NCBI GenBank assembly: GCA_036583965.1
Contig: JAZBQD010000034.1
Coordinates: forward strand, 372,001 to 436,000
Direction of reading: 5' to 3'
Source: Prunella strophiata
Taxonomy: Eukaryota > Chordata > Aves > Passeriformes > Prunellidae
DNA length: 64,000 bases
The stretch's first letter is position 1. Each line of letters starts with the position of its first letter. Of the stretch, positions 24,424-26,475 are shown one piece after another. The notes beneath the pieces were generated by a model. The model ran no database searches, was not told the origin of the DNA, and saw nothing but the letters and a program-made list of their open reading frames with translations. The position numbers were made by a program, and so were the translations under genes.

Positions 24424-26158
24424 ATGGGTACCGCAGAGTCCACACAGCAATGGGAGGTGTATGTCCAAGTTGTGGGTACCCTGAAGGAGGGGGGGGCGCG
24501 AAATTTTCAAAGGGCATTGTTAAAAAGTTTGTGAGTGAAGCTAAAAACTTGGTTTTTAGCTTTACTAATGTTAGTTACCCTGCGAGATGTGCAAAATAGT
24601 GTATTTTAGAAGCAAGTAGGTGCTAAACTGAGTTGATATAACAAAGAAGGGTGACTCGCCCGTTCAAGAGGGATTTATGCAATTATTTTTATTGGTTTGG
24701 GATTTGTTAAAAGTGAAAGAAAAGGGAATTAAAAAACAACCTGTGAGTTTATCCCCAGTTTTCCCTAGAAACTCTTTTTCTCCACCTTCTGTTCCCATTC
24801 CCTCTTCCCCTACACCGGGTGGGCAAGGGGGAGCCTGTCAGAAGATGCAGGGTTGCCACCGTCTCCCTGGGTCCCCAATAGCCCCTCGGCACCCCAGCCC
24901 TGAGAGTGCTGGCCACGCTGTCAGGGACCTCACCCTGATCCCTCAATCCAATCCCTTTGTCCCTGTTAAAAACCCTAGTTCTGAGCTCCGAGATAGCTCC
25001 TTTCCTCGTCCCATAGAAGCACCCCGAAACGGCTGCCGCCTTGTCGCAGGTGCTTCTTCGTCCCAGAATCCCTTTCTTCCCGCCCAAACCCACTCCTGGC
25101 TCCCTCCTCTTCCTTTGCAGCTGGCAGTTCTACCCTACCCACTGTTCTACCCACTGTTCTTCCCACTGCCACCTCACTAGCAATCCCCGCCTCTTCAGCT
25201 GCCTCCACCCAGATTCCCACCCGGCAGCCCTTGGTTTCCGCCCGCCAGCTTCCTGTTTCCGATGCTCCGGCTTCCAGTTCCCATGGTAACAGAGGGACCG
25301 GGAGTGATGGAAAATATCAATTCCCCTTTCCTAGCTCCAGTCATCTATGATGCGAGGGGGAAGCACCTTAGATGGGAGTCCCTCTCATATCAGAGCATCA
25401 AGGAACTCTGCAGAGCACAGCGTGAATTTACCCGAAAAAGTGAATTTTCTGAGAGCCTTTTAAAAGCAATGTTCACATCAAACACACTTGTCCCTGCAGA
25501 TTTAAAACGGCTTTTCAATTGCTTACTCCCTCCATCTGAATACAAATTGTGGGAACACACGTGGAAGAGATACGTAGGGGACCTCCTTCCACAGCTTCTG
25601 CAGAACCCTGAATGCTCCACGGATGCAGAGGAAAATTACATCACCCCTGATCATCTGCTCAGTGAGGGTGATTGGAAACAAGTGCAGAAACAGGCGTGGG
25701 GGGATTCCAAGGGAAATTCTAGATCAAGTTAAAGATGCTGCAGAGAAAGCTTTCTTGATCATACGATCCAAAGAACCAGTTCAACCCTATGTTTCTATTA
25801 AGCAGTCTTTTTCAGAGGCATTTATGGACTTTGTCGGTCGAGTCCGTGCTGCTGTAGAAAAGAAAGTCGAAAACCTTGACATACAAGGGCAGTTGATACT
25901 AGAAATAGTCTCCAACAATGCCAACGAAGTGTGCAGAAAAGTCATCCTGTCACTCCTTCAACTTCTGCTCCCACTCTGGACCAACTTACTGAGGAGTGCA
26001 CCAAGAATGCTATGATTACCAAGAGAGACTCCCGAGAAAGAGAAGGGGCTGAGCCTCTGCGCAGCTGCCAGCACCGGGAGCGGGATGCGCTTCACACAGC
26101 AGCACCTCAGTGCCAGCAGCACATCCACCACCACCAACCCAAACACAAACCCATTGAC
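24424..26158 (+). pseudogene. gag: gag remnant: matrix, proline-rich segment, capsid
   Basis: Gag forms the virion shell. The start is ATG at 24,424 (MGTAESTQQW), with glycine at position 2 as needed for myristoylation. A proline- and serine-rich segment covers about 24,760-25,250. Capsid begins near 25,337 (PVIYDARGK), with a helical N-terminal domain rich in W and L. The major homology region is at 25,797 (IKQSFSEAFMDFVGRV) with normal spacing but serine in place of the usual glycine after Q, followed by NANEVCRK. Capsid then runs to TLDQLTEECTKNAM near 26,010. Lesions: frameshift at a G-run about 24,489-24,496, stop at 24,597, another frame change about 24,600-24,620, stop at 25,178, frameshift at the G6 run 25,698-25,703 and one near 25,945-25,960. 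No CCHC zinc knuckle follows. The protein cannot be made intact from this copy. Confidence 0.85.
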
Positions 26159-26475
26159 AAAGGTAAAAAAGTCCTTGCCAAAAACGTTTTGGGGACAGTG
26201 AAATGGTTCAGTGTGAAAAACAAATTTGGTTACATAACCAGGAATAATAACAAAGATGGTGTGTTTATCAGACTGCTATAAAAAATAATAACCCCAGGAA
26301 ATGCCTCCACAGTCTAGGAGATGGAGAAGTTGTGGAATTTAATATAATACAAGGAAGATAAGGCCCCCAAGCAACTGATGTGACAGGACCTGGTGGAGTT
26401 CCAGTCCTAGGCAGTAAACATGCAAACCTGTGAAATACTCTCCACGTCATAGAAGTCCTCCACACCTACCACACC
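26159..26475 (+). pseudogene. Captured Y-box protein cold-shock domain (YBX1-like), in frame after capsid
   Basis: The frame carrying the capsid C-terminus continues without a stop into KGKKVLAKNVLGTVKWF, then NKFGYI, NNNKDGVF. These match the cold-shock domain of vertebrate Y-box proteins: VLGTVKWF, the RNP1-type NGYGFI and the RNP2-type VFVH. After a small deletion near 26,266 the frame shifts and the rest of the domain follows (QTAIKNN, NPRKC, GDGEVVEF, VTGPGGVPV, GSK), with a stop at 26,359. Nucleotide similarity seems to extend into the first basic patch (tccacgtcatagaagtcctcc at about 26,441). Y-box proteins bind single-stranded DNA and RNA and package mRNA. Host YBX genes split this domain over several exons; here it is intronless, so it derives from spliced RNA. 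GGVPV and GSK favour YBX1 over YBX3, but the paralog is not certain. Confidence 0.88.

What the first reader, a model, noticed from the sequence alone, without database searches (positions are those of the whole stretch)
25923..26281. Retroviral Gag in which a host Y-box cold-shock domain occupies the nucleocapsid position
Seen: one uninterrupted frame links the capsid C-terminus (TLDQLTEECTKN) to KKVLAKNVLGTVKWF and the RNP1-like NKFGYI of a Y-box cold-shock domain. No CCHC knuckle lies between them. Known: nucleocapsid is the RNA-packaging part of Gag, and cold-shock domains of YBX proteins bind single-stranded RNA and DNA and coat mRNA. Inference: the element, or its ancestor, made a Gag-CSD fusion in which a captured host domain replaced or supplemented nucleocapsid for genome packaging. 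I know of no described retrovirus with this layout.
Basis: partly seen in the sequence, partly recalled or inferred. Interest (0 to 1): 0.93.

Follow-up and report, generated by a model that had tools for sequence, protein, structure and literature searches.

The report
Broken retrovirus carrying captured Y-box gene
A recently inserted, now broken retrovirus-like element carries part of a host RNA-coating gene in the place where its relatives keep their own RNA-packaging domain, so a host protein part may once have done that job.

Summary
Window 23286-27897 is a provirus: LTRs 683/685 identical, 6-base target duplication, class II-type capsid. One open frame (25880-26281) runs from the capsid end into the first half of a Y-box cold-shock domain (CSD); the second half follows in a shifted frame. 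Against human YBX1 (recalled) 196/264 bases match, E 8e-44. Of seven related Gag proteins five reach the capsid end, and three of these have a CCHC knuckle behind it, one degenerate. This element has none. So the family's usual form has a nucleocapsid, and captured YBX sequence sits there instead.

The functional claim is only partly supported. This copy is broken: capsid twice, CSD by a 4-base deletion and a stop. But the CSD changes are more conservative than neutral decay predicts (P at most 0.003 in 11 of 13 settings; 0.06-0.07 in the two extreme ones). That suggests past constraint, in the virus or in a host paralogue before capture. RNA packaging is not shown; other copies could not be searched. 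Host-gene capture by ERVs is known; none of my paper searches listed a Gag-CSD fusion.

The parts
23280..23285 (.). left target-site duplication GAAACT
   Evidence: same 6 bases at 27898-27903 right after ...CTACA
23286..23970 (+). 5' LTR (shared core; its last bases, to about 23975, differ from the 3' LTR)
   Evidence: 683 of 685 identical to 27209-27893; starts TGTGGC; AATAAA at 23737
24424..24534 (+). probable broken start of gag (matrix), short frame beginning MGTAES
   Evidence: direct reading; no meaningful Pfam match; resemblance recalled only
24749..25525 (+). gag, proline-rich part and start of capsid
   Evidence: tblastn to relative P0006, 44% over 262, E 1.1e-48
25370..25696 (+). 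capsid N-terminal domain
   Evidence: PF00607 E 9.8e-19; P0001 E 2.7e-53, 69%
25692..25946 (+). capsid C-terminal domain, in another frame
   Evidence: PF19317 E 3.9e-7; P0003 E 6e-34, P0004 E 7e-26
25947..26032 (+). end of capsid, in the third frame, up to AMITKRDS; last stretch clearly alike to relatives
   Evidence: tblastn P0003, P0004
26033..26164 (+). open linker without a clear match; the junction between gag and YBX lies in here
   Evidence: open in frame 25880-26281
26165..26269 (+). Y-box cold-shock domain, first half (in frame with the capsid end)
26269..26424 (+). Y-box cold-shock domain, second half, and GPGGVPV.GSK.A, shifted frame; stop at 26359-26361
26441..26464 (+). possible remnant of the first basic cluster behind the CSD of YBX1 (PRHRSPP like PRRRGPP)
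   Evidence: permissive DNA alignment; outside the significant blastn match
26899..27093 (+). possible end of an envelope transmembrane protein
   Evidence: hydrophobic stretch by eye; no Pfam match; unproven
27198..27208 (+). polypurine tract AAAAAAGGAGA
   Evidence: directly before the 3' LTR
27209..27897 (+). 3' LTR (shared core to 27893, ends ...GCTACA)
27898..27903 (.). right target-site duplication GAAACT

Best explanation
A class II-type endogenous retroelement with an ordinary CCHC nucleocapsid took up a spliced YBX mRNA, probably by template switching during reverse transcription. The YBX part joined the end of capsid in frame and stands in place of nucleocapsid, and there is no room left for pol. 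The result is a short, helper-dependent element that kept moving: this copy is recent, while its coding parts were already old and damaged. I think it most likely that at an earlier stage the joined Gag-CSD protein was made and that the CSD supplied single-stranded RNA binding in place of nucleocapsid. SHOWN: provirus; relatives with CCHC; YBX sequence in its place; no CCHC left; broken state of this copy. INFERRED: mRNA capture, helper dependence, past selection on the domain. SPECULATIVE: the nucleocapsid-like role (about 0.35 on its own). The confidence given is for the statement without that last step; the rivals below compete over that last step and overlap with the rest.
For: LTRs 683/685 alike, target duplication. 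Capsid families. Of 7 relatives (P0001-P0007) 5 reach the capsid end; 3 of these (P0001 degenerate, P0002, P0004) have a knuckle 27-31 residues on, P0003 and P0005 do not. The element matches relatives up to about 26032 and YBX from about 26150-26165. No internal A/T run of 8 or more, no flanking repeat of 9, no CCHC. CSD: 56 of 87 residues as YBX1; mean BLOSUM62 of the 30 amino-acid changes 0.77 against -0.53 to -0.14 in the ordinary neutral settings. The matched part (CSD, possibly plus the first basic cluster) resembles YB-1C (residues 1-180), which coats RNA at about 6 nt per CSD (PMC6451097, passages). A betaretroviral Gag is reported to gather with YB-1 and viral RNA (MMTV; PMC4486188, passages).
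Against: This copy cannot make the fusion protein: capsid frame broken twice, CSD by deletion and stop. Only one copy was seen. Frame agreement at the junction has a one-in-three chance. Of eight RNA-contact residues named in PMC9928419 (passages), H87 falls in the deletion and K118 is a stop; keeping five others in class is not significant (P 0.14). With almost only G-A and A-G changes the neutral model gives P 0.06 and 0.07, and on the count of non-negative changes 0.32 and 0.35. The CSD's ancestor is assumed to be YBX1 and its codons were recalled. The number of stops (1) is what neutral decay predicts. In the control comparison the capsid N half did not show the conservative pattern (P 0.35 and 0.42) although the C half did (0 of 600 runs in each setting). 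Two of the five relatives that reach the capsid end show no knuckle.
Confidence: 0.6

Rival explanations
1. Passive passenger: the YBX piece was taken up by accident, was never used as a protein, and was carried along by a helper-driven defective element that needed only its LTRs and packaging signal.
For: Present copy broken in gag and CSD; no room for pol; host sequence in defective ERVs is known (ERV-Hako, PMC11905727, passages; PMC4299795, passages).
Against: Conservative changes in the CSD are hard to get by neutral decay in 11 of 13 settings.
Confidence: 0.25
2. The constraint was in the host: the element recently captured the transcript of an already diverged YBX paralogue or retrogene; nothing was selected inside the virus.
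For: The CSD is equally near human YBX1, YBX2 and YBX3 (56, 56, 55 of 87, all recalled), so its source is not resolved.
Against: Known vertebrate Y-box CSDs are nearly alike (recalled), so a paralogue with 31 of 87 sites changed would be unusual; only about 5 substitutions are expected in the 3.2 kb interior since insertion (arithmetic from 2/685), few for the lesions seen if capture were that recent.
Confidence: 0.15
3. Transduced effector: the Y-box protein acted on the host cell or on the element's own LTR (transcription, translation, stress granules), as in acute transforming retroviruses with Gag-oncoprotein fusions, not as nucleocapsid.
For: Same layout as Gag-oncoprotein viruses (recalled); three ATTGG (inverted CCAAT) motifs in the LTR.
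Against: About 1.3 ATTGG or CCAAT are expected in 685 bases at even composition (arithmetic), so three is little; no CTGATTGG core was found.
Confidence: 0.2
4. A separate LINE-made retrocopy of YBX landed inside an ERV.
For: The YBX sequence runs through the CSD without introns (exon structure recalled).
Against: No A or T run of 8 or more in 25901-27208 and no flanking 9-base repeat in the stretches compared; it would also have to coincide with loss of nucleocapsid and pol.
Confidence: 0.04

Closest known systems
Crocodilian ERVs with captured host mRNA (CrocERV29 KIT-ligand, CrocERV31 nectin3; Chong et al. 2014, PMC4299795, outline and passages)
   Same: host mRNA inside a provirus; nectin3 replaces a viral gene (env); purifying selection on the KIT-ligand ORF reported
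   Different: captured parts lie between pol and env or replace env, not the nucleocapsid end of Gag; several copies known there, one here
ERV-Hako with SUSD6 or SPHKAP parts (PMC11905727, passages)
   Same: group II ERV with forms that carry host gene parts
   Different: other host genes; no nucleocapsid swap in the passages I saw
Acute transforming avian retroviruses with Gag-oncoprotein fusions (recalled)
   Same: truncated Gag joined in frame to a host protein, loss of pol, helper dependence
   Different: here the partner is an RNA-coating Y-box protein and the element is endogenous
MMTV Gag and host YB-1 (PMC4486188, passages; the primary paper it cites was not held)
   Same: betaretroviral Gag gathers with YB-1 and viral RNA
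   Different: there YB-1 is a separate host protein
Maize Bs1 (as described in PMC5408686, passages)
   Same: LTR element linked to retrocopies of three cellular genes
   Different: plant, other genes

Membership tests
LTR provirus | two near-identical LTRs and a short target-site duplication | tested here: met
   683/685; GAAACT on both sides
LTR provirus | primer-binding site behind the 5' LTR | tested here: not met
   best of 21 recalled tRNA ends over 23741-24420 is 13/18, at 24315, far from the LTR end; the 5' LTR end differs from the 3' LTR end
Class II ERV gag | Gag_p24 N and C domains | tested here: met
   PF00607 9.8e-19, PF19317 3.9e-7; nearest PDB chains are named ERV-K and capsid protein p27 / Rous sarcoma virus, and for the C half also BLV and HTLV-I, all weak (E 0.006-0.07; 0.04-0.96)
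Class II ERV gag | CCHC nucleocapsid after capsid | tested here: not met
   no CCHC in six frames; 3 of 5 relatives reaching there have one, Pfam zf-CCHC E 0.0004, 0.004, 0.7, each under the cut-off
Autonomous retrovirus | pro-pol present | tested here: inconclusive
   only about 0.74 kb (26465-27208) lies between the YBX part and the 3' LTR, too short for pol; no profile search for pol was made
Y-box (YBX) protein | Y-box-type CSD followed by GPGGVPV.GSK.A | tested here: met
Y-box (YBX) protein | intact domain with all RNA-contact residues | tested here: not met
   4-base deletion at H87, stop at K118
LINE-made processed retrocopy | poly(A) tail and own target duplication | tested here: not met
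   no A/T run of 8 or more in 25901-27208; no 9-base repeat between 25990-26170 and 26425-26950
ERV with captured host gene | host-derived segment inside the provirus, in more than one copy | not testable with these tools
ERV with captured host gene | captured ORF under purifying selection | tested here: inconclusive
   changes conservative, but place and time of selection unknown

The most novel reading that the evidence does not exclude
A retroviral lineage gave up its own zinc-knuckle nucleocapsid and used a captured host Y-box cold-shock domain, fused to capsid, to bind and package its RNA; the element in the window is a recent, decayed descendant.
Probability: 0.3. Interest if true: 0.85.

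Novelty: new variant of a known kind. Interest (0 to 1): 0.6.

Why it matters
Nucleocapsid is usually treated as a fixed RNA-packaging part of orthoretroviral Gag (general knowledge). A natural swap for a host RNA-coating domain would show that Gag can recruit a ready-made RNA-binding module, and would give a natural test of what packaging really requires. It would also turn the reported cooperation of a betaretroviral Gag with YB-1 into a case of outright capture. Even as a passenger, it is an example of host mRNA capture at the nucleocapsid position of a class II-type ERV.

Tried and rejected
Considered and rejected: (1) chance similarity: E 8e-44 at DNA level, E 1.3e-11 and 2.2e-8 at protein level. 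(2) An independent LINE retrocopy: no tail, no flanking repeat in the stretches compared. (3) A CSD beside a retained nucleocapsid: no CCHC left. (4) Telling YBX1 from YBX2 and YBX3: not possible (56, 56, 55 of 87). (5) RNA-face residues as proof of selection: P 0.14. (6) Primer-binding site: none found. (7) A second element near 50.6 kb: weak likeness only, E 1.7. (8) Late-domain motifs (PPxY, P[T/S]AP, YPxnL) in four gag frames: none.

Led nowhere: the 133-aa open frame in the protein collection gave 4 candidates, none significant (only proteins of 0.55-1.75 times its length are candidates there, so a longer Gag-CSD protein would have been missed); viral contigs gave no relative by protein and no exact DNA match; a genome-contig pattern gave none; Rfam and tRNA scans of the window were empty. 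The MAFFT alignment of all capsid pieces with the CSD piece misplaced the last piece and was not used. Paper searches showed no Gag-CSD element in the rows listed (8-20 each, not all papers found); the library holds open-licence papers only. Of papers I saw listings, and passages (for one also the outline) of eight.

Full report
What is there. The finding lies inside a provirus. Two direct repeats, 23286-23970 and 27209-27893, agree at 683 of 685 bases without gaps. A 6-base duplication, GAAACT, sits directly before the left repeat and directly after ...GCTACA at the right one, and a polypurine tract precedes the right LTR. The last bases of the two LTRs differ (...GCAGC then GCGCA on the left, TACA on the right), and no primer-binding site was found behind the left LTR (best of 21 recalled tRNA ends 13 of 18, at 24315), so the left end looks altered.

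Gag. PF00607 (capsid N) matches frame 25181-25732 at E 9.8e-19 and PF19317 (capsid C) matches frame 25578-26015 at E 3.9e-7. PDB matches are weak: ERV-K and p27/Rous sarcoma virus capsids for the N half (E 0.006-0.07), and Rous sarcoma virus, ERV-K, BLV, HTLV-I and others for the C half (E 0.04-0.96). Capsid occupies three frames: N domain to about 25697, C domain about 25692-25946, and the last part in the frame of the finding.

Relatives. A protein search with the capsid-N frame gave one significant hit of 39 candidates, P0001, 69% identical over 75% of the query, E 2.7e-53. A search with an alignment of P0001 and two capsid pieces gave 7 proteins of 6778 candidates, P0001-P0007, with one source tag and no organism named. 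Five (P0001-P0005) reach the capsid end. Three of those five carry a zinc knuckle 27-31 residues after the AM[IV] or ALI motif that closes the capsid: P0002 and P0004 with CX2CX4HX4C, P0001 with the last cysteine changed to tyrosine. P0003 ends about 10 residues after that motif, and P0005 runs on without a knuckle. Pfam scores for the knuckles are E 0.0004, 0.004 and 0.7, each under Pfam's cut-off. P0003 and P0004 match the window to 26029 and 26032 in the frame of the finding; the P0001 alignment runs on weakly to 26074. So the usual form of this Gag has a nucleocapsid there. The element has no CCHC pattern in six frames.

The Y-box part. The first half of the CSD (26165-26269) is in frame with the capsid end; the second half (26269-26424) is in another frame. 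Each half matches PDB YB-1 (E 1.3e-11 and 2.2e-8). With the human YBX1 coding sequence typed from recall (its translation agrees with the YB-1 stretches printed), blastn gives 196 of 264 identities with one 4-base gap, E 8e-44, over 26165-26424. A permissive alignment suggests that likeness goes on to about 26464, over the first basic cluster behind the CSD, but this lies outside the significant match. The match crosses the CSD without introns, so it is probably of mRNA origin (exon structure recalled). The nearest paralogue cannot be named: 56, 56 and 55 of 87 residues agree with YBX1, YBX2 and YBX3, all recalled.

State of this copy. Besides the capsid frame changes, the CSD has the 4-base deletion at H87 and a stop at K118. 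The copy cannot make a Gag-CSD protein now. About 5 substitutions are expected in the 3.2 kb interior since insertion (half of 2/685 times 3.2 kb), so much of the damage and nearly all of the CSD divergence should be older than this insertion. That means a damaged element moved with the help of others (inference).

Was the CSD ever under selection? Of 87 codons compared, 56 residues are unchanged, 30 changed and 1 is a stop; differences by codon position are 17, 14 and 34. The excess at third positions could come from human-to-host distance alone and was not used. The 30 changes have a mean BLOSUM62 score of 0.77. Neutral simulations to the same number of changed residues gave means of -0.49 to -0.23 in five settings (1000 runs each; none reached 0.77) and -0.31 to -0.14 in six settings with the observed spectra or a strong G-to-A bias (1500 runs each; P 0 to 0.0027). 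A second measure, the number of changes with a score of zero or more (24 of 30), gave P 0 to 0.015 in those eleven settings. Two settings with practically nothing but G-A and A-G changes came near (mean 0.36 and 0.39, P 0.06 and 0.07; second measure P 0.32 and 0.35). They fit the data poorly, since only 17 of 31 changes at positions 1 and 2 are of that type. The one stop is as expected without selection (P 0.55-0.68 in the eleven settings). As a control, the capsid C half against P0001 gave 1.00 (none of 600 runs in either setting), but the capsid N half gave -0.55 (P 0.35 and 0.42), so the test does not detect every coding region. Keeping five RNA-face residues in class has P 0.14. My reading: much of the divergence happened while the domain was useful, but the test cannot say whether in the element or in a host paralogue before capture.

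How it may have worked. YB-1 residues 1-180, the CSD plus the first basic cluster, form a filament with RNA at about 6 nt per CSD, while the CSD alone does not (PMC6451097, passages). RNA contacts of the CSD include K64, W65, Y72, F74, F85, H87, K118 and E121 (PMC9928419, passages); here they read K, W, F, Y, F, lost, stop, Q (H87 by the gap). [quoted passage not shown] the paper it cites was not held). Gag with nucleocapsid replaced by a leucine zipper still forms particles, though budding is slow or incomplete (PMC7471995, passages). A Gag-CSD fusion acting as a coarse RNA binder is thus plausible, but it is inference. Template switching between packaged mRNA and an LTR element's RNA is a described route, and LTR-mediated retrocopies are reported for chicken (PMC5408686, passages).

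Known and new. Host-gene capture by ERVs is known: KIT-ligand and nectin3 in crocodilian ERVs (PMC4299795, outline and passages), SUSD6 and SPHKAP in ERV-Hako (PMC11905727, passages), and oncogenes such as v-Src in exogenous retroviruses (PMC13297096, passages). Ten paper searches showed no Gag joined to a cold-shock domain in the rows listed; only the top rows of each search were shown and the library is limited to open-licence papers. I file it as a new variant of a known kind.

Limits.

Noticed in passing
window 23965-24010: The 5' LTR end and the expected primer-binding site look rearranged: after GCAGC the left LTR reads GCGCAGTTTG, the right one TACA then the target duplication. No tRNA match was found.
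   Followed up: partly
window 26899-27093: A 64-codon open stretch with a hydrophobic segment that could be the end of an envelope transmembrane protein; no Pfam match.
   Followed up: partly
window 26165-26424: Differences from human YBX1 (recalled) lean to G-to-A: 22 of 65 against 10 A-to-G; direction is uncertain because the true ancestor is unknown.
   Followed up: partly
window 36053-37108: A G-rich, repetitive stretch gives overlapping open frames of 228-327 codons on both strands; by eye a tandem repeat rather than a gene.
   Followed up: no
window 21500-21583: At least two perfect 42-base tandem units upstream of the provirus (the region compared began at 21500).
   Followed up: no
window 50613-50978 (minus): A 121-codon open frame slightly like the possible env end (22 residues, E 1.7); probably chance.
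   Followed up: yes
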